From NCBI RefSeq assembly GCF_001700505.1, contig NZ_MAPV01000013.1, positions 1-64,000 of the forward strand: a stretch of 64,000 nt of DNA, read 5' to 3'. The notes beneath the pieces are model-generated. The model worked only from the letters and a program-made list of their open reading frames with translations. It was not told the DNA's origin and searched no databases. The DNA is from Streptomyces mutomycini (GTDB lineage Bacteria; Actinomycetota; Actinomycetes; Streptomycetales; Streptomycetaceae). Of the stretch, positions 43,754-64,000 are shown in pieces (position 1 is the stretch's first letter; every line of letters starts with the position of its first letter). The position numbers and the translations under genes were made by a program.

Positions 43754-44410
43754 ATGAACGCCCTGATCCCGCGTCCCGCCATGGAGGTCGCCCCGGGAGC
43801 ATGGCACGTGCCCGGCTGGCTCGGCACCGCGCAGCAGCGGGAGCTGGTGACGGCCTGTCGCGCCTGGGCCACCGGGCCCGTCCCGATCCGGCACACCCGC
43901 CTGCCGCGCGGCGGCGTCATGTCCGTTCAGACCGTCTGCGTCGGCTGGCACTGGCGACCGTACGAATACACCCGCACGGCGGACGACGTGAACGGCCGGC
44001 GGGTCGCCGATTTCCCGGACTGGCTGGTCCGGCTGGGACGCCGCGCCCTGCTGGAGGCGTACGGCGACGAGGAGGCCGCGCGGGACTACACGCCGGACAC
44101 CGCGCTCATCAACTTCTACGACGGGCAGGCCAGGATGGGCATGCACCAGGACAAGGACGAGCGGTCGTCCGCCCCGGTTGTTTCCCTGTCCGTCGGCGAC
44201 ACCTGTGTCTTCCGGGTGGGCAACACCGAGACCCGCACCAAGCCGTACACCGACATCGAACTCTCCTCGGGCGACCTCTTCGTCCTCGGCGGCCCCTCAC
44301 GGTTCGCGTACCACGGGGTGCCCAGGGTCCACGAAGGCACCGGCGACCCGGCCACCGGGCTGCGCTCGGGGCGGCTGAACATCACGATGCGGGTCACCGG
44401 GCTCGCGTGA
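43754..44410 (+). CDS. alkB: Alpha-ketoglutarate-dependent DNA repair dioxygenase AlkB
   Basis: A 218-residue Fe(II)/2-oxoglutarate dioxygenase that removes methyl groups from 1-methyladenine and 3-methylcytosine. MGMHQDKDE gives His131 and Asp133, FAYHGVPRVHEG gives His187, and LRSGRLNITMRVTG supplies the Arg residues for 2-oxoglutarate; the spacing matches E. coli AlkB. ALINFYDGQARMG is the conserved strand before the HxD motif. ATG at 43754 follows a weak purine run; it is separated from ogt by 94 nt, so it may be in the same transcript. A 20-bp tandem repeat starts at its stop codon. Confidence 0.95.
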   Translation: MNALIPRPAMEVAPGAWHVPGWLGTAQQRELVTACRAWATGPVPIRHTRLPRGGVMSVQTVCVGWHWRPYEYTRTADDVNGRRVADFPDWLVRLGRRALLEAYGDEEAARDYTPDTALINFYDGQARMGMHQDKDERSSAPVVSLSVGDTCVFRVGNTETRTKPYTDIELSSGDLFVLGGPSRFAYHGVPRVHEGTGDPATGLRSGRLNITMRVTGLA

Positions 44411-44464
44411 CCGGGGCCGGGCCCGCGTGACCGGGGCCGGGTTCGCGTGGCCGGGGCCGGGCCC
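44405..44464 (+). repeat. Three tandem 20-bp repeats after alkB
   Basis: Units at 44405-44424, 44425-44444 and 44445-44464 begin GCGTGRCCGGGGCCGGG and differ at a few bases only. The first unit contains the alkB stop codon. It is a small G+C minisatellite and can form GGCC-type hairpins. Confidence 0.9.
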
Positions 44465-51954: not shown

Positions 51955-52552
51955 GCGGGTCGGGGGCGCCTGCTGGCAACGGCCCGCGTTCTCACGCCGC
52001 CTGTGCGGGGTCGCGGCCGAACTGCGCGCCTCGCCCACCGTGCCACCGACCGCCGGGGTCTCAGATGGCCGGGGGACGGGGGCGCGTACCCGGCGCATGG
52101 GAGCTTGGCGCGATTTTCACCGATGCGGGGGAGTGCGCGGGCGCACACCGGCGACTATCCGAAAATGGCCGGTTCATATCAAGTTCTACCAGCACCATAA
52201 GGACATGGGGTGGCTGAATTTCTTCGAACAGTGCGGGTCGGCATATTCCGCGGGCCGGTGCGCTTCCTGGCGCCCGTCTGAATACTTGTCGGTAATCGGG
52301 CGAACACGTGCCGTTCGCAGCCGTGGGTCCTCTAATGTGATTGGCGTGAACGGGTTACGTCGGGTTGACCCCGGATCGGACACAGGTATGTCGGCGGTAT
52401 GGAGGCGTAACGTATCTCCGTTCCGCGTGACCGGAACCGCATTGAGGGGCCGGGGCTCGGAAGGTGTGCCGCGGAAAGGACCGAAGCGGTGCACCCCGGA
52501 CATGGCTGATGACAGTGTCGTAAATGGAGTGAGAACAAGTGGGGGGACAGCC
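51955..52552. other. Long 5' region upstream of mbtH
   Basis: About 600 nt without a supported gene. The open frame that continues upstream of mbtH on the + strand has no coding-like codon bias. Base composition falls from about 52150 to 52560, with TATCAAGTTCTACCAG, GGTAATCGGGCG and CTCTAATGTGATTGG as A/T-richer islands; TAATGT near 52334 is a -10-like candidate. Likely promoter and regulatory DNA for the mbtH/NRPS operon. No iron-box (DmdR/IdeR type) was seen. Confidence 0.5.
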
Positions 52553-52771
52553 GTGACCAATCCTTTCGATGACGAGTCGGGACGGTTCGTGGCGTTGGTG
52601 AACGACGAGGGCCAGTATTCCTTGTGGCCCTCGCACATCGACGTTCCGGGTGGCTGGCGCACCGCCGGCCCCGAAGGGTCGCGTCAGGAGTGTCTCGACG
52701 CGATCGAGGGCGCCTGGACCGATATGCGGCCCGCCGGCCTGGTGCGTGCGATGAGGGCTGACGCCGGATAG
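52553..52771 (+). CDS. MbtH-like protein
   Basis: A 72-residue MbtH-fold chaperone that activates NRPS adenylation domains. TNPFDDESGRFVALVNDEGQYSLWP then IDVPGGWRTAGPEGSRQECLDAI and WTDMRP are the three signature blocks, including the NxE/D, SLWP, P-x-GW and WTDxRP motifs. GTG at 52553 follows GGGGGGACAGCC, a strong ribosome binding site, so the longer upstream reading was discarded. The NRPS starts about 390 nt downstream. MbtH partners usually bind A domains of the same cluster. Confidence 0.95.
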   Translation: MTNPFDDESGRFVALVNDEGQYSLWPSHIDVPGGWRTAGPEGSRQECLDAIEGAWTDMRPAGLVRAMRADAG

Positions 52772-53164
52772 GCGGGCGGCGGGGCATCGAAGGCGCCTTC
52801 CCAGGTCGAGTGCCGGGTCGGCGCTCCCGCCTGATCGACTTCGCTCCAATCTGAGCAGATTCGATCAGGTGTGACGGATAACTTTCGCCATTTGATCACC
52901 CCTGCCCATTTTCTTCATGTGGCATTCATGAAGCGTCGACGGGCCGACTCCTGGCCGCCCTTGATGCGCGAGGACATTGCGGCCTCCTGTCGAGACGACA
53001 TGTCCCTTTACGGTGCCCGATCGAACCGGATCCCACGGGTGCCGTGAAGTTCCCCGCTCGGCTTACGTCTCGTCCCGGCGTCGACGATCGGTGCACTGGC
53101 GTGGCCGGATTCACCCGGCCCTTCTTCACCGTCCCCAAATCTCTCCCCAAAGGTGTGGACCGGC
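52772..53164. promoter_or_regulatory. mbtH-NRPS spacer with two inverted repeats
   Basis: Unusually long for an mbtH-NRPS junction. AATCTG-AG-CAGATT (52848-52861) and CTTCATG-TGGCATT-CATGAAG (52913-52933) are perfect inverted repeats in an A/T-richer stretch (52845-52935). They may be operators for a separate NRPS promoter. The 3' half has no gene. The AAAGGTG before the NRPS start serves as ribosome binding site. Confidence 0.5.
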
Positions 53165-56100
53165 ATGCAGGAAAACCGTTCTCTTCCGACCCTTCCGGCG
53201 CCCGCAGCCGAGGAGGAGTTCCTCGAACTGAGTACGGCCCAGCAGGGCGTCTGGTACGGGCAACTCGTCGACCCGGACAGTCCCAAATACAACATCGGGG
53301 AATGCTTCGAGATCCGTGGTGACCTCGACGAGGAATTGTTCGCCGCAGCCCTGCACCGGGCCGTGGCGCTGTGTGACAGCCTCAACCTCGAGTTCGTCAC
53401 CCGGGGCGAGACGGTGTGCCAGTACGTCGCTCACCGCCCCGCGGAGGGCACCGGCCGGCTCAGCCTGGCCGATCTGTCCGGCGCGGACGATCCCGCAGCC
53501 GCAGCCGAGCGCTACATGGCCGACGACATGTCCACCGTCGACCGGCTCGACGCCCCGCGCCACCACTTCGCCCTGCTGCGTCTCGGCCCGCGGCTGCACT
53601 ACTGGTACGTCCGCTTCCACCACATCGCCGTCGACGGACTCGGCGGCTCGGTGTTCGGCCGTCTCGTGGCCGACCTCTACGGGCGGGCGGCCCGCGGCGA
53701 GGACCTCGCCGAGGCCGTGCTGCCCGCCGCACCCCTGCGCGACCTCATGGCCGACGAGGCGGCCTACCGCGGCTCGGACCGCTTCGAGGCCGACCGCGCC
53801 TACTGGACGGGCAGGTTCGCCGACCGGGCGGGCGGCGGTGCGGGGGCCACCGCCGAAGCCGGGGAGGACACGTACACGCGCGCCGGCGCCGCGCTCGTGC
53901 GCCGGCGCACCGACGCGGCGACACCGGCGGTGACCGCCGGAGCGGACGTCCGGATGCACACCGGGGAGACCCTGCCCGTCGCCGTCCTCGACGACCTGCG
54001 CCGGCTCGCCGCCGAGAACCGCAGCAGATGGACCGCCGTCCTCGTGAGCGCGGTCGCCGCCTATGTCGGCCGGGTCACCGGCGCCCAGGACGTCACGGTG
54101 GGCCTCGCCTCCAACGGCCGTCACGGCGGGCTGCGGCACATCGTCGGTATGACCGCCAACATCCTGCCGCTGCGCATCGGCGTCACCGCCGACATGACGG
54201 TGGGCGCCCTCGTGCGTGCCGTCACCGCCGAGATGGGCGGCGCACTGCGCCACCGCCGGTTCTCCCGCGAACAACTCGCCCGCGAGCTGAACATGACCGA
54301 GGACGCGGCACATCTGACCGACGTCGTCGTCAACATCATGGGCTACGACTACGACCTGGACTTCGCGGGCAGCCCCGCCTCCTCCCGCGTGCTGTCCATC
54401 GGCCCGGTCGACGACGTCTCCCTCTTCGTATCCGAACGGGCCGAGGAGAAGGGGCCGTTGATCGGATTCGACGCCAACCCGGAGCTCTACCACCCCGAGG
54501 ACGTACGGCTGCTCCAGCAGACCCTCGTCCCCTTCCTGACGGCTCTTGCAGGCGCGGACGCCGATACCCCCCTCCGTGACCTGCCCTTCCTCGACGACAC
54601 CGCCGCGCAGGCGCTGCTCGCCCAGGGGCGTGGCGCCGTCCTGCCGGTGCGCACCACCGGTCCGGGCCTGCCGGAGGCATTCGCCGCGCGGGCCCGGCTG
54701 ACCCCCGACGCCCCGGCGGTGGTGGAGGGCGCTGTCACACTCTCCTACCGGGAGCTGGCGCGGACGGCGGGCGACCTCGCCGGTGCCCTGGCCGGCTGGG
54801 GGATCGGCGCGGAGGACGGCGTCGGTGTCCTCATGGGCCGCTCGGCGGCCGTGGTGTCCGCCACGCTCGGCACGGTCGAAGCGGGTGCCGCGTACGTACC
54901 CATGGACGCGGCCTGGCCGGTGGAGCGGCTGGACCGCGTCGCCGAAGTGGCACGCTTCCGCGCTCTGGTGGTGGACGAGGCCGGCGCCGGTCAGGCCTGG
55001 GTGGAGGCAGCGGCCGCTTCACTGCCGGTGCTCGTCCTGGACGGTCTCGGCGTCGTCGTACGGGGCGCTCCGCAGCAGCGCGGACGGCCGGCTGATGTGA
55101 CCCGCGCCGACCGGCTCGCCTACGTGATGTTCACCTCCGGCTCCACCGGTCTGCCCAAGGGCGTGGGCGTCACCCACGCCGACGTCCTCGCACTGACCGC
55201 TGACACCGCCTGGTCCGACGGGGCGTGCGAGGCGGTGCTGCTCCACTCGGCCTACGTGTTCGACGCCTCCACGTTCGAGATCTGGGTGCCGCTCCTGAAC
55301 GGCGGCCGTGTGGTCGTCGCGCCCGGTGGCGTGCTGGAGGCGCCTGCCCTCAGGGACGTGGTGGACCGGCACGGGGTGACCGCGCTGTTCCTGACGACGG
55401 CTCTGTTCAACGTGGTGGCCGAGGCCGACCCCGCGGCGTTCGCCGGCTTACGCCTGGTCGCCGCGGGCGGCGAGTCCGCGACCCCGGACCTGATGCAGCG
55501 GGTGGCCGAGGCCGCGTGCGACACGCGCGTCCTGCACGTGTACGGTCCGACGGAGACCACGACCTTCGCCACCCGCCACCAGGTCACCGCCGGCAGGCCC
55601 GGCGTGCCGCCCATCGGCCGGGCCCTCGACGGGATGCGTCTCCACGTGCTCGACGCCGAACTCGCAATGGTGCCGCCCGGCGTCGTGGGCGAGCTGTACC
55701 TGAGCGGGCACGGTGTCGCCCGCGGTTACCAGGGCCGGCCGGCGCTGACCGCCACCCGGTTCGTCGCCGATCCGTACGACACGCGCGGCGCCCGCATGTA
55801 CCGCACCGGTGACCTCGTGCGCTGGACCGCGCGCGGTGACCTCGAGTACGTCGGACGCGCGGACGGGCAGGTCAAACTCCGCGGTTTCCGCATCGAGCCC
55901 GCAGAGATCGAGAACACCCTGCTCACCGACCCGGACGTGCGGGCCGCCTGCGTCCTGGTCCGTGAGGACATACCCGGCGACCGGCGACTGGTCGCCTATG
56001 TCGTGGGGACACCCGGCGCCCGGCCGGGCGACGCCGCCCTGGCCCGGCGCGTGGGGCGCGCCCTGCCCGCCTACATGGTGCCCTCCGTGTTCGTCCTGCT

Positions 56101-59100
56101 CGACGCACTGCCACTGAACCCCAACGGCAAGGTCGACCGCCGTGCCCTGCCCGCCCCTCGCGCCGTCACCGCCACGGGCCGGGCACCGCGCACGGCCTAC
56201 GAGGAAGTCCTGGCCGGTCTGTTCGCCGATGTCCTGGGAGTCGCGGCCGTCGGCATCGACGACAACTTCTTCTCCCTGGGCGGCCACTCCCTGCTCGCCA
56301 CCCGCCTCACGGGAAGAGCGCGGGCCGCGCTGGGCGCGGAAGTGGGTATGCGTACCCTCTTCGACCACCCCACGGTGGCCGCTCTCGCCGCCACCCTCGA
56401 CACCACCGCGACGACCCGGCCGGCCCTCGTCCCGCAGCGGCGGCCCGGAACGGTACCGCTCTCCTACGCGCAGCAGCGCCTCTGGTTCCTCAACCGCGCC
56501 GAGGGGCCCGGCGACACCTACACGATCCCGCTCGTCCTCGAACTCGAAGGCATCCTGGACCCGGACGCCCTGCGCGGCGCCCTGGCGGACGTCGTCGTCC
56601 GGCACGAGAGCCTGCGCACGGTCTTCGCCGAGCACGACGGAGTGGCCCGCCAGGACGTACTCGACGCATCCGCCGCCGCTGCGCTCGTCCCCCTCGCCGT
56701 GGAGCTCCCGCCTGCCGGGGAGAGTGCCGAGGTCTGGGCCGAGGCAACCGTGCACCGCCTGTCCGCGGCGCCCTTCGACCTCGCGGGCGATCTCGGTGTC
56801 CGCGCCCATCTGCTCCGCCTGGGCCCCGACCGCCACGTCCTGGTGCTCGTCCTCCACCATGTCGTCGCCGACGGCTGGTCGCTCGCTCCGCTCAGCCGTG
56901 ACCTCGGCGCCGCCTACCGCGCACGTGTCTCCGGAACGGACACGCCCGACTGGCCCGCACTGAGCGTGCAGTACGCCGACTACACCCTCTGGCAGCGCCA
57001 ACTGCTCGGCGACGCCGACGACCCGGACAGCCTGGCCGCACGCCAGCTCGCCTTCTGGCAGGAGGCGCTGCGCGGCGCCCCCGACCTGCTCGACCTGCCG
57101 CTCGACCGTCCCCGCCCGGCCGTGGCCGGCCACCGGGGCGACGCGGTCCCCTTCGAGCTGCCCGCGCCCGCGCACGCCGGGCTCACCCGGCTCGCCCGCG
57201 CCACCGGCTGCACCCCCTTCATGGTGCTCCAGGCGGCCCTCGCCGTGACGCTGCACGCCCACGGCGCCGGCACCGACATCACGATGGGCGCCGCGGTGGC
57301 CGGACGCACCGACGAGGCACTCGACGACCTGGTCGGGTTCTTCGTCAACACCGTCGTCCTGCGCACGGACGTCTCCGGCGACCCGACCTTCCGCGAACTG
57401 CTGCGGAGGGTGGCGGAGTTCGACATCGCCGCATTCAGCCACGGCGACGTCCCCTTCGAACGGATCGTGGAGGCGGTCAACCCCGAGCGTTCCGGCGACC
57501 ACCACCCGCTCTTCCAGACCATGCTGGTCCTCCAGAACCAGGAGCGGGCGGGGCTCGATCTCCCCGGCGTCATCGCACACGACCGGTCCCGGCACACCGG
57601 GGTCAGCAAGTTCGACCTGACGTTCTCGCTGACGGAGACCACCGAGAGAACCGAGACCACCGAGAGAGCCGAGACCACCGAGAGAGCCGAGACCACCGAG
57701 AGAGCCGAGACCACCGAAGCCCCCGGCGGAATCGGGGGATACCTGGAATACGCCACCGACCTCTTCGACGCCGGCACGGCCCGCGCACTGTGTGCCCGCT
57801 TCGCCCGCGTCCTCACCCGGGCCGTGGCGGACCCCGACCGTACAGTCGGTGACCTCGACCCCCTCACGCCGGACGAGCGGGACCGCGTCCTCGGCCAGGG
57901 GCGAGGCGCCGAGCTTCCACTGCACGTGCCCACCGCCCCCGTGGCGGTCCGGGAGTGGGCCGCGCGCACACCCCGCGCCGTCGCCGTCCGCGACGCGCAC
58001 ACGAGCCTCACCTACGCCGAGCTCGACTCCCGCGCCGACGCCCTCGCCCACGTCCTGCGCGAGCGGGGCGCGGGCCGTGAGGACCGGGTGGCCCTCGCCG
58101 CGCCGCCGTCCGTGGACACCGTCGTCGCCATGCTGGCCGTACTGCGAACCGGCGCCGCCTACCTGCCCGTCGACCCGCAGTATCCGCCCGCCCGCATCCG
58201 GCACATGCTCGACGACGCCCGGCCCGCCCTGCTGCTCACCACCACGGACGTCCACGCGGACCTGCCCGCCTGCGACGTACCGTGGCTCGCCCTCGACGAT
58301 CCCGCCGCCCGGCCAGCCGGGCCCACCACGGCCGTACAGGACACCCCGCACCCGGCGGACCCCGCGTACGTCATTTACACCTCCGGCTCCACCGGCCGTC
58401 CCAAGGGCGTGGTCGTGACGCACGAAGCGCTGGCCGGCCACATGGCCTGGATGGCGCGGTACCTGACCGTCACACCGGACGACCGGGTCCTCGCCCGCAC
58501 CTCCACCAGTTTCGACGCCTCCGGGTGGGAGCTGTGGCTCCCGCTGATGAACGGCGCCGAAGTCTGTGTGCTGCCGCACGAAGCCAACCGGGAACCGGAC
58601 GCCCTCGTCTCCTGGATGAGCCGGTTCGGCGTCACCGTCGCCCAGTTCGTGCCCTCGCACCTGACCCTCGTCCTCGCCGAGTCGGCGCACGCCGCGCCGC
58701 TCCCCTCCCTGCGCGCCGTCCTGTGCGGCGGCGAACCGCTGCCGCGCGCCCTCGCCCGCGACGCCGCCGAGCTGTGGCAGGCCGAGGTGCACAACCTCTA
58801 CGGCCCGACCGAAACCACCATCGACGCCACCGCCCACCGCGTCGTCGCCGGCCCGGCGGCCGGCGGGCAGGGGAACGCCCGCACATCGTCCGAGACCGTG
58901 CCGATCGGCCTTCCCGTCGACACCATGCGCGCCTACGTCCTCGACGGCCGGCTGCGGCCCGTACCTCCCGGCGTCACCGGGGAGCTGTACCTGTCGGGCC
59001 CCAACCTCGCCCGCGGTTACCTGAACCGCCCGGGTCCGACCGCCGCGCGGTTCGTGGCCGACCCGTTCGACGCCACCGGCGCCCGCATGTACCGGACGGG

Positions 59101-62100
59101 TGACCTCGTACGGTGGAACCGGGACGGTCTGCTCGACCACGTCGCCCGCGCCGACGACCAGGTCAAACTACGCGGCTTCCGCATCGAGCTGGGCGAGGTC
59201 GAGGCCGCGCTCCTGGCCCTGCCCGGCGTCACGGCCGCCTGCGCCGTGATCCGCGAGGACATACCCGGACGGCGCCGGCTCGTCGCCTACGCCGTCTCCG
59301 GCGACCCGGCCCCGCGCCCCGCCGCCCTGCGCGACGCCCTCGCCGAGACCCTGCCGCACTACATGGTGCCCGGCGCCGTCGTCGTCCTGGACGTCCTCCC
59401 CGTCCTGCCCAACGGCAAGGTGGACCGGCGCGCCCTGCCCGAGCCCGGGACGGACGCCGACGCCCCCGCCGGACCGGGACGGCGCACCCTCCCGGAGGAG
59501 CTGCTCGCCGGGATCTTCGCCGACGTCCTGCACCGGCCCCTCGTCGGCCCGCACGACAGCTTCTTCGACCTCGGCGGGCACTCCCTCCTCGCGATGCGCG
59601 TCGTCAGCCGTGTCCGCGCCGTCCTGGGCGCGGAGATCGCCGTACGCACCCTCTTCGAGCACCCGACCGTCGCGGGCCTTGCCCGCGTCCTGGACGCGCC
59701 GGGAAGCGCCCGCCCGCCCGTACTGCCCGTGGCACAGCGGCCCGATCCTCTGCCACTGTCCTACGCGCAGAAGCGCCTGTGGTTCCTCAACCGGCTCGAA
59801 GGCCCCGGCTCCGCCTACAACATCCCGCTCGTCCTCGAACTCGACGGCACCCTGGACACCGACGCCCTGCGGGCCGCCCTGCGCGACGTCGTACGGCGCC
59901 ACGAGGCGTTGCGCACACTGTTCCCCGAACAGGACGGCGTACCGCATCAGCTGATCCTTCCCGTCGACGCCGCCGCGCCCCGCCTGCCGGTCGTGGCGAT
60001 GGCCCCCGGTGACGTGGAGGCAGCCGTCCTGGCCGCGGTCCGCGAGCCGTTCGACGTCGTCGTGGACCCACCGCTGCGGGCGCTGCTGCTGCGCTCCGCG
60101 CCCGGCCACCACGTCCTGGTGCTCGTCGTGCACCACATCGCGGGCGACGGCTGGTCCCTCGCCCCGCTCGTCCGCCATCTCGGTGACGCGTACCGGGCCC
60201 GTCTCGAGGGCCGGGAGCCCGCGACGGTGAGCGGTACCCCGCTCCAGTACGCCGACTACACCCTCTGGCAGCACGCGGTTCTGGGCGACGGCGAGGCGCC
60301 GGAGAGCCTGCTGCGGCAGCAACTCGACCACTGGCACACCGCCCTGGCGGGTCTGCCCGGTCTGATCGACCTGCCGCTGGACCGGCCGCGCCCGGTCACC
60401 ACCGACCCCAGGGGGGCCGTCCACACCTTCGACGTGCCGCCCGCCGTCCACGCACAACTCCTGCGACTGGCAGCCGAGTCGGGCAGCAGCCTGTTCATGG
60501 TGCTCCAGGCGGCGGTCGCCACCCTGCTGCACCGGCACGGCGCTGGCGACGACATCCCGCTCGGCTCGCCCGTCGCCGGCCGCACGGACGAGGCGCTGGA
60601 GGACCTGGTCGGGTTCTTCGTCAACACGCTCGTCCTGCGCACGGATCTCTCGGGACGCCCGACCTTCCGCGAACTCCTCGTGCGAGTGAGGGAGTTCGAC
60701 CTGGCGGCCTTCGCGCATCAGGACGTGCCCTTCGAGCGTCTCGTCGAGAGTGCCAACCCCGTCCGGGCACGCAACCACCACCCGCTGTTCCAGACCATGC
60801 TGGTCCTGCAGAACCAGGAGACCGACCGGCCCGACCTGCCGGGCCTCGCCGTCGAGGACCGGCTCGTCCACAACGGCCTGAGCAAGTTCGACCTCACCTT
60901 CGCCTTCACCGAGGAGCGCGCCGCCGGCGGTCTCACCGCCGGGATCGAGTACGCCACCGCCCTCTTCGACCGGACCACCGTCGAAACCCTCGCCGCCCGT
61001 CTGGTCCGCCTCCTGGAACAGGTGGCCGCCGACCCCGGTCTGCCGCTCACGGGCTACGGCCTGATGACCCCGCACGAGCACACCCGGGTCACCCACTCGG
61101 GCACCGGGCGCGCCCTGCCCGCGGGCAGGGCGGACGCCACCCTGCCCGCACTCTTCGCCGACCGGGCACGCCGCGCACCGGGCGTCGTCGCCGTGACCGG
61201 CGACGACGCCACCCTCACCTACGCCGAACTGGACGAGGTCTCCGACCGCCTCGCCCGCGCCCTGGCCGGCCTCGGCGTGGGCCCCGAGTGCGGGGTCGGT
61301 GTGCTGCTCACCCGGGCACCGGCCGTCGTGGCGGTGTCCCTGGGCGCGGTCCGCGCGGCGGGCGCCTACGTCCCGCTGGACGCGCGCTGGCCCCGGGAAC
61401 GGCTCGACCGGGCCGCCGAGGTGGCGGCCGTGCGGGTCCTCGTCGTCGACGAGGAGGCATCGTCCTCCCCGTGGGTCACCGCGACGGGCCGACGGGTACC
61501 GGTCGTGGTCGTGGACCGGGCCGGCCGGATCCTGCGGGGCGCACCCGAGCGGCCGGGCCGCCCAGCCGCCGTGCCGGGCCCCGGCGCGCTCGCCTACGTG
61601 ATGTTCACATCCGGCTCGACCGGCCTGCCCAAGGGCGTAGGCGTCACACACGCCGACGTGGCCGCGCTCGCGGCCGATTCCGCCTGGAGCGGCGGCGCCG
61701 CCGACGCGGTCCTGATGCACTCGGCGTACGTCTTCGACGCCTCCACGTTCGAGATCTGGGCGCCGCTCCTGAACGGCGGCCGGATCGTCGTCGCACCGGA
61801 GGGCGTCCTGGAGGCCCGAGTCCTCGGCGACGCCGTGCGTGAGCACGGGGCGACCGCCGTGTTCCTGACGACGGCCCTGTTCAACGTGATCGCCGAGACC
61901 GATCCGGGCGCGTTCGCCGGCCTCCGGCTCGTCTGCGCGGGCGGGGAACTGGCATCGCCGGATGCGATGCAGCGGGTCGCCGGGACCGCACCGGACGTTC
62001 GGGTCCTCCATGTGTACGGACCCACCGAGACCACCACCTTCGCCACCCGCTACGACGTCACGGCAGACCTGCCGTCCGGCCCCCCGCCCATCGGCCGTCC

Positions 62101-64000
62101 CCTGGACGGCATGCGCGTATACGTACTCGACGGCGCCCTGGGCGCGGTCCCGCCGGGAGTCGTGGGCGAGCTCTATCTGGCCGGACCCGGTGTGGCACGC
62201 GGCTACACCGGGCTGCCGGGCCTGACCGCCACGCGTTTCGTGGCCGACCCGTTCGACCCGGCCGGCGGGCGCATGTACCGCACCGGCGACCTCGTCCGAT
62301 GGACCGGTGACGGGCAGATCGCCTACGTGAACCGGGCCGACGGGCAGGTGAAGCTGCGCGGGTACCGCATCGAACCCGGCGAGATCGAGGGCGTGCTCGC
62401 CTGCTGCGAGGGCGTGGCCGACTCCTTCGCCGTCGTCCGCGAGGACACCCCCGGCGACCGGCGGCTGGTCTCCTACGTGGTGCCCGCCCCCGGCGGGCGC
62501 CCCGAACCCGGCGACCTCGCCCGGGCCGTCGGCCGGTCCCTGCCCGCCTACATGGTGCCCTCCGCGTTCGTCCTGCTCGACGCGCTGCCGCTGACCGTCA
62601 ACGGCAAGGTGGACCGGGGTGCCCTGCCCGCCCCCGAGCACCACGCACCGGGCCGCGGACGCTCCGCCCGCACCGTCCGCGAGGAGATCCTCTGCGGCCT
62701 CTTCGCGGACGTGCTCGGCCTCGACGGGGCGGGCGCCGAAGACGACTTCTTCGCCCTGGGCGGCCACTCGCTGCTCGCCACCCGCCTCGCCGCGCGCATC
62801 CGTACCGCGCTCGGAGTGGAGGTCCAGGTCAAGGCCCTCTTCGAACACCCCACCCCGGCGGCACTGGCCGCCACGCTGGAGGGCGCCGAAGCGGCCAGGA
62901 GACCGCTCGAACGTGCCGCGAGCCGCCCCGATCCGATGCCGCTGTCCTTCGCGCAGCAACGCCTGTGGTTCCTCAACCGGTTCGAGGGTCCCAGCGCCAC
63001 CTACAACGTGCCGCTCGTGCTGCGGCTGCACGGGCCGCTCGACGCGGACGCCCTGGAGAGCGCGCTCGCGGACGTCGTCGAACGCCATGAGAGCCTGCGC
63101 ACCGTCTTTCCCGAGACCGACGGCGTGGCGCGCCAGCTCGTCCTCGACGCCGACGGCGCGGACCTCGACCTGACGCCCCGCGACACCGGCCACGCCCGTC
63201 TCGACGAGATCCTGCGTGCCGAGGTCGCGCACGCCTTCGACGTGAGCGCGGACATCCCCGTACGGGCCAGGCTGCTGCGGTCGGGCGCCGAGGACCACGT
63301 CCTCGTACTGGTCGTCCACCACATCGCGGGCGACGGCTGGTCCCTCGCCCCGCTCGCCCGCGACCTGGGCGTGGCCTACCGGGCGCGTACCGAGGGCGTG
63401 GAGCCCTCCTGGACGGAACTCGGCGTCCAGTACGCCGACTACACCCTGTGGCAGCGGGCGCTGCTCGGCGACGAGGGCGACCCGGCCGGACAGGCGGCCC
63501 GCCAGCTGGACTTCTGGCGCACCGCACTCGCCGGGGCCCCCGACCTGCTCGACCTGCCCTGCGACCACCCGCGCCCCGCCGTCACGGCGCACCGCGGCGA
63601 CGCGTTCGCCTTCCCCGTCGACGCGGGCACCCACCGGCTGCTGGCGGAACTCGCCCGCGCCCGCGGGTGCAGCCTCTTCATGGTGCTCCAGGCGGCCCTG
63701 TCGGTGCTCCTCTCCCGGCACGGCGCCGGCGAGGACATCCCGCTCGGTACCGCCGTCGCCGGGCGCACCGACGAAGCCCTCGACGACCTGGTCGGCTTCT
63801 TCGTCAACACCCTCGTCCTGCGCACCGACCTGAGCGGCGACCCCACCTTCCACGAGGTGCTGGACCGGGTGCGGGAGTTCGACCTGGCGGCCTACGCGCA
63901 CCAGGACGTGCCGTTCGAGCGGCTGGTGGACTCCCTGAGCCCGGTCCGGGCCCAGAACCACCACCCGCTGTTCCAGACCATGCTCGTCCTCCAGAACCAC
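53165..64000 (+). CDS. Multimodular nonribosomal peptide synthetase, 3' end outside window
   Basis: At least 3612 codons, in frame to the window edge. Domain order: C1 (about residues 15-450, HHIAVDG with His152/His153, EntF-like), A1 (about 490-985), T1 (Ser1042 in LGGHSLL), C2 (HHVVADG, His1231/His1232), A2, T2 (Ser2140), C3 (HHIAGDG, His2323/His2324), A3, T3 (Ser3202), C4 (HHIAGDG, His3385), cut off. No epimerase or thioesterase is seen. My hand-aligned ten-residue codes are A1 DAFFAGVTFK, A2 DAWQLGLIDK and A3 DAFFCGVTFK. A2 resembles glutamine codes; A1 and A3 look hydrophobic, uncertain. Codon 762 is TTA. ATG at 53165 follows AAAGGTGTGG. C2 carries a hexapeptide insertion. Starting with C suggests lipo-initiation or an upstream partner. 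Confidence 0.95.
57635..57718 (+). repeat. In-frame 18-bp minisatellite within NRPS C2 domain
   Basis: The unit GAGACCACCGAGAGAGCC (first copy with ACC at its end) is repeated 4.7 times without loss of frame and encodes ETTERA hexapeptides. Copies start at 57635, 57653, 57671, 57689 and 57707. It lies between FDLTFSLT and [12 protein letters not shown]; the matching place in C3 has only a short loop ([13 protein letters not shown]), so it is an insertion. Confidence 0.95.

What the first reader, a model, noticed from the sequence alone, without database searches (positions are those of the whole stretch)
57635..57718. Hexapeptide (ETTERA) minisatellite inside an NRPS condensation domain
Five 18-bp units insert about 24 charged residues into a surface loop near the end of C2. 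Length would change by slippage without frameshift, so the enzyme may have a variable loop, possibly at a docking surface.
Basis: seen in the sequence. Interest (0 to 1): 0.6.

Follow-up and report, generated by a model that had tools for sequence, protein, structure and literature searches.

The report
Regrown repeat loop in peptide synthetase
A small stretch of repeated DNA lengthens one surface loop of a bacterial peptide-building enzyme, and comparison with related species shows that this same loop has a different, often repetitive, sequence in nearly every species while the rest of the enzyme stays much the same.

Summary
At 57635-57717 there are 4.6 in-frame 18-bp units (98% matches) in the second condensation domain (C2) of an NRPS, at one place in the genome. 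The hexapeptide is a higher-order form of a 9-bp (three-residue) unit, [15 protein letters not shown], in register with the codons of the conserved strand end "SLTE".

Among 45 distinct orthologous C2 sequences the segment spanning this turn is 30-91 residues (median 48), with different sequence in almost every species. In 32 genes compared directly C2 exceeds C3 in 32, and C3 is 28-29 residues in 27. C2 loops show 9-bp periodicity over codon shuffles, strongest next to the LTE codons and confined to one 27-sequence clade. The closest relatives mostly differ by three-residue steps.

AlphaFold puts the array at the low-confidence tip of an otherwise normal hairpin; an outgroup C2 has a confident 5-residue turn there.

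Best explanation: a weakly constrained hairpin tip where strand-end codons are repeatedly copied by 9-bp slippage and then decay. Short-loop orthologues argue against an essential docking role. No activity or strain-level data exist. New variant of the known class of in-frame coding minisatellites; moderately interesting.

The parts
57635..57718 (+). 18-bp tandem array (4.6 copies), [28 protein letters not shown]; 9-bp sub-unit in register with LTE
   Evidence: TRF; codons; single place in genome
57629..57637 (+). Putative seed: CTG ACG GAG, the Leu-Thr-Glu codons at the end of the conserved strand [10 protein letters not shown]
   Evidence: codon reading; in-register similarity of loops to own LTE codons
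57617..57643 (+). Beta-strand before the tip (model residues 395-403)
   Evidence: AlphaFold model
57644..57721 (+). Low-confidence tip (model residues 404-429)
   Evidence: AlphaFold model, pLDDT blocks 70, 53, 64
57722..57754 (+). Beta-strand after the tip (model residues 430-440)
   Evidence: AlphaFold model
56435..57871 (+). C2 condensation domain as modelled (479 residues; HHxxxDG columns H141 H142 D146 G147 invariant in 95 aligned sequences)
   Evidence: Pfam PF00668; alignment; fold match
53153..64000 (+). NRPS reading frame C-A-T-C-A-T-C-A-T-C..., continuing to 67651 in the contig
52040..52771 (+). ORF whose residues 173-223 match MbtH, just upstream of the NRPS

Best explanation
The array is the current, recently expanded state of a hypervariable hairpin tip in C2 of one NRPS family. 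The nine bases that encode the end of the preceding beta-strand (Leu-Thr-Glu) are copied in tandem by replication slippage. Copies mutate and are recopied as higher-order units (mostly 9, 18, 27, 36 or 45 bp), and older copies decay away from the strand. Because the unit is a multiple of three and the tip is weakly constrained, growth is tolerated and the frame is kept. The loop is therefore mostly a mutational by-product that turns over between species. Shown by sequence: in-frame position, variation mainly in C2, 9-bp register in one clade, decay with distance, unit-step differences in the closest pairs. Inferred: slippage as the process, solvent exposure, and absence of a strong function.
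For: 45 distinct C2 orthologues: 30-91 residues, median 48, against C3 at 28-29 in 27 of 32 genes with both and 33 in 131 of 173 other C domains. Lag 9, 18, 27 matching z 11.8, 14.3, 8.9 over codon shuffles, not at 3, 6, 12, 15, 21, 24; kept without the three clearest arrays and in 17 representatives. Loop 9-mers match their own LTE codons 3.77 of 9 in register against 2.42 and 2.73 out of register (null 3.01, sd 0.072), falling with distance. Same-residue codons in register identical 301 of 460, out of register 875 of 1850. In-register Glu codons equal the own seed codon in 58 of 70, permuted mean 38.1 (p 0.0012). Closest pairs (flank identity 0.926 or more): 10 of 11 length differences are multiples of three residues. 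TRF periods divisible by 9: 15 of 19 in the loop, 29 of 131 elsewhere. An orthologue found after the idea was formed reads LTE-ATE-ATE-ATE-AAE-VTE (L216). Low model confidence at the tip only, confident short turn in an outgroup.
Against: 16 of the 36 loops tested singly are not significant. The 9-bp signal is absent in the 13 orthologues outside the 27-row clade (lag 9 z 0.9; they show 6- and 18-base signals). The Thr-codon test is not significant (50 of 68, p 0.11). Over all pairs at 85% or more, only 48 of 124 length differences are multiples of three. Shuffles ignore relatedness, and conserved ordinary turns also give lag signals (z 4.1 at 9, 10.5 at 12). Why C2 and not C3 or C4, which also carry TE codons at the strand end, is unexplained; a function is not excluded.
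Confidence: 0.72

Rival explanations
1. The tip is a docking or insulating element: its fast change is diversifying selection that keeps C2 matched to its own neighbouring domains and mismatched with those of other assembly lines in the cell.
For: Turnover is strong in C2 only mildly shared by C3, nearly every species has its own charged or polar tip, and the enzyme around it stays conserved.
Against: Eight orthologues have segments of only 30-36 residues; no conserved motif; synonymous codons are copied too, which selection on protein sequence does not require; other loops of the same enzymes also collect repeats.
Confidence: 0.12
2. A three-residue periodic protein structure is selected, and the DNA periodicity only follows from it.
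For: Three-residue register with Thr and Glu or Asp/Gly recurring.
Against: Synonymous codon identity in register (301 of 460 against 875 of 1850; Glu codon test), exact copies of the strand codons in L028, low model confidence of the tip.
Confidence: 0.06
3. The window array is an assembly artefact.
For: The genome is in 410 contigs.
Against: The array is only 83 bases; analogous loops occur in genomes of one contig (G209).
Confidence: 0.03
4. The rare AGA codons of the array pause translation after C2 and help folding.
For: 4 of the 7 AGA codons in the ORF stretch 53153-64000, which holds 323 Arg codons, lie in the array.
Against: The ten other orthologue loops printed codon by codon contain no in-frame AGA; one loop printed, L024, does.
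Confidence: 0.03

Closest known systems
In-frame coding minisatellites / intragenic VNTRs (a review title, Verstrepen 2005, seen only as a reference-list entry)
   Same: Short tandem units, multiples of three, length varying without frameshift, disordered polar sequence
   Different: Inside the turn of a catalytic NRPS domain, regrown many times at one site with different units that share a register with the strand-end codons
Canonical NRPS condensation domain (PF00668; solved relatives DhbF 5u89, FscG C3 7kvw)
   Same: Whole fold and active-site motif
   Different: Tip of the hairpin after the latch enlarged by 21 residues here; DhbF has a short tip
Flavopeptin-type peptide-aldehyde NRPS (read about in passages of PMC8009326 and PMC4071589)
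   Same: Streptomyces NRPS line whose orthologue ends in a reductase domain
   Different: Cluster identity not tested; the original flavopeptin paper is not held

Membership tests
In-frame coding minisatellite | Tandem units of about 9 bp or more, several copies | tested here: met
   4.6 copies of 18 bp, 98% matches
In-frame coding minisatellite | Unit length divisible by three inside an open frame | tested here: met
In-frame coding minisatellite | Copy number varies between strains of one species | not testable with these tools
   One genome per species in the searched set; only between-species variation seen
NRPS condensation domain (PF00668) | Profile match, HHxxxDG motif and fold | tested here: met
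Docking / COM-type recognition element | Conserved contact sequence | tested here: not met
   Tip sequence not conserved among 45 orthologues and short in eight
Docking / COM-type recognition element | Physical contact with a partner domain | not testable with these tools
   No coordinates or complex model available
Peptide-aldehyde (flavopeptin-type) cluster | Terminal reductase domain | tested here: met
   NAD_binding_4 at the end of the second NRPS of orthologue G271; in the window's own genome the contig ends at 70817, so not seen there
Peptide-aldehyde (flavopeptin-type) cluster | Same gene cluster as in strain NRRL F-6652 | not tested
   Reference sequence not compared; original paper not held

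The most novel reading that the evidence does not exclude
One structural site in one enzyme family acts as a standing nursery for new protein sequence: codons of a conserved strand are continually re-templated into the adjoining turn, giving nearly every species its own polar tip, and selection uses these tips as species-specific insulation between assembly lines.
Probability: 0.1. Interest if true: 0.7.

Novelty: new variant of a known kind. Interest (0 to 1): 0.45.

Why it matters
It marks a place inside a catalytic NRPS domain where natural orthologues carry up to about 60 extra residues, useful as a candidate insertion point in assembly-line engineering. It is also a natural series for measuring how coding minisatellites arise next to a fixed seed and decay, and a warning against reading a repeat in one genome as a functional motif.

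Tried and rejected
Literature: searches (open-licence PMC library only) showed, in the listings seen, no paper that describes a minisatellite or regrown loop in a condensation domain. Subscription papers are not covered, and searches listed only 20 of 585 and 12 of 39 papers. From papers I saw passages only. The original flavopeptin paper was not held, so cluster identity stays open.

A role on the other strand or as RNA was not pursued, since the array is in frame and its register follows codons. Rare-codon pausing was considered and set aside (see rivals). Strain-level copy number could not be tested. A reading of A-domain specificity made by eye from recalled code positions was not used.

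Rows dropped or missed: rest on 40 C2 sequences. One search repeats the length and period tests on 45; the added rows are L024, L109/L138, L175/L193, L216, and one further row that the script printed as new with loci L177/L195 (a 31-residue segment of the same locus was printed but its sequence was classed otherwise). Why these were missed was not traced. The per-loop test covered 36 of 40 loops, the rest being too short. One search found no C2 with its stricter pattern in 4 of the 49 loci given (L032, L200, L201, L202) and kept 44 distinct genes. The tree used 40 C2 rows plus 3 outgroup rows. The independent-difference count (8 of 9) tested was thinned by hand from the listing. Two of the five 'other' domains with segments of 38 or more look like pattern artefacts with an early start (L008/L089 and L051).

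Full report
What was reported and whether it is there. The window holds, at 57635-57717, 4.6 copies of an 18-bp unit with 98% matches, the highest-scoring tandem array of the window. It is in frame in a long NRPS reading frame that begins at 53153 and runs to 67651 in the full contig, inside the second of the four condensation domains seen in the window. The longest exact periodic run is 49 bases, against at most 14 in 30 codon shuffles. A query from the array has one match in the genome.

The true unit. Read from the strand end, the codons run [30 protein letters not shown]. The basic unit is nine bases, and ETTERA is a doubled, higher-order form. TRF also reports period 9.

Relatives. Orthologous C2 domains were collected from whole-genome searches, a scan of named genomes and one plasmid. 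There are 45 distinct C2 sequences; the segment from KFDL to the end of the next strand is 30 to 91 residues, median 48, with 37 of 45 at 38 or more. The next condensation domain of the same enzymes is nearly fixed: in 32 genes with both measured, C2 is longer in 32 and C3 is 28-29 residues in 27. Of 173 other C domains, 131 have exactly 33. Outgroup C2 domains, such as that of S. noursei (L032), have a canonical 33-residue segment.

Nearly every species has its own loop. Examples are LTE copied from the strand several times over (L028), ATE repeats (L047, L107, and L216 on an S. microflavus plasmid), a 27-bp unit (L113/L142) and a 24-bp unit (L112/L141). Among pairs with flanks 90% or more identical, 22 of 24 differ in C2 length, against 5 of 22 for C3. 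On a 43-row tree at least 35 changes of length are needed. The nearest relative of the window copy, Streptomyces sp. HB132, has 93% identical flanks and a loop without the array.

Signs of DNA copying. Over all 45 loops, with the seed codons left out, matching at lags 9, 18 and 27 exceeds codon shuffles by z 11.8, 14.3 and 8.9, and is at or below the null at 3, 6, 12, 15, 21 and 24. The signal survives removal of the three clearest arrays and thinning to 17 representatives. Loop 9-mers match their own LTE codons best in register, and the match falls with distance. Same-residue codons in register are identical in 301 of 460 cases against 875 of 1850 out of register. In-register Glu codons equal the synonymous codon of the local seed in 58 of 70 cases (p 0.0012), while the Thr test is not significant (50 of 68, p 0.11). 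Among the closest pairs, 10 of 11 length differences are multiples of three residues (8 of 9 after thinning by hand, p 0.001). This fades when all pairs at 85% or more are used (48 of 124). Singly, 20 of 36 loops tested reach p below 0.05. The lag-9 signal lies in one clade of 27 sequences; the other 13 show z 0.9 at lag 9 and stronger 6- and 18-base signals. Shuffles do not model relatedness, and conserved ordinary turns also give some lag signal (z 4.1 at 9, 10.5 at 12), so single z values should not be read as probabilities.

Place and specificity. TRF on 44 of these NRPS reading frames finds 19 arrays in 6.8 kb of loop segment and 131 elsewhere in 568 kb in all; 15 of 19 and 29 of 131 have periods divisible by nine. 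Other loops of the same enzymes also carry repeats in single species: an A-domain loop in L194, A-domain loops in L144 and L143, and the C3 hairpin in L128. So the C2 tip is the hottest permissive site found, not the only one.

Structure. The AlphaFold model of the window C2 is confident (mean pLDDT 93.0); the tip between strands 395-403 and 430-440 falls to blocks of 70, 53 and 64. The outgroup C2 model has strands 395-403 and 409-419 with blocks of 96-97 there. The fold matches solved condensation domains. From the FscG C3 bridge limits in PMC8097023 (passages) and the alignment I place the latch just before AKFDL, so the variable tip is the far end of the strand that follows the latch; that mapping is mine. 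Distances to carrier-protein sites were not measured.

Context. The gene follows an ORF with an MbtH match. In orthologue G271 the next NRPS ends in a reductase domain, and the S. microflavus plasmid has MbtH and two NRPS genes in the same order. This suggests a peptide-aldehyde line, perhaps of the flavopeptin type, not proven.

Interpretation. The evidence favours a weakly constrained hairpin tip where strand-end codons are repeatedly copied by slippage in units of nine bases and then decay. A docking function is not excluded but is not needed, and orthologues with canonical-length loops make it less likely. Searches of the open paper library showed no earlier description in the listings seen. 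Coding minisatellites as such are well known, so this is a new variant of a known kind.

Noticed in passing
L128 (G394), C3 hairpin, residue about 2630 of its ORF: The C3 hairpin of one species carries its own repeat (EGQGSGG-like, 42-bp period), so the neighbouring domain can expand at the same structural place.
   Followed up: partly
L194 residue about 1716; L144 residues about 1932 and 3884; L143 residue about 821 of their ORFs: A-domain surface loops of the same NRPS carry species-specific in-frame repeats (for example DPSVRAE four times in L194).
   Followed up: partly
L196, L197, L199 (genus code g42): Their orthologous NRPS genes hold 11-15 tandem arrays outside the C2 tip, far more than most others.
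   Followed up: no
window 44397-44462: A 20-bp tandem repeat, 3.3 copies, score 111, between genes upstream of the cluster.
   Followed up: no
NZ_CP054927.1 351777-366293 (L216): The orthologous NRPS lies on a 608-kb linear plasmid of S. microflavus typed as mobilizable, so the cluster may move between strains.
   Followed up: no
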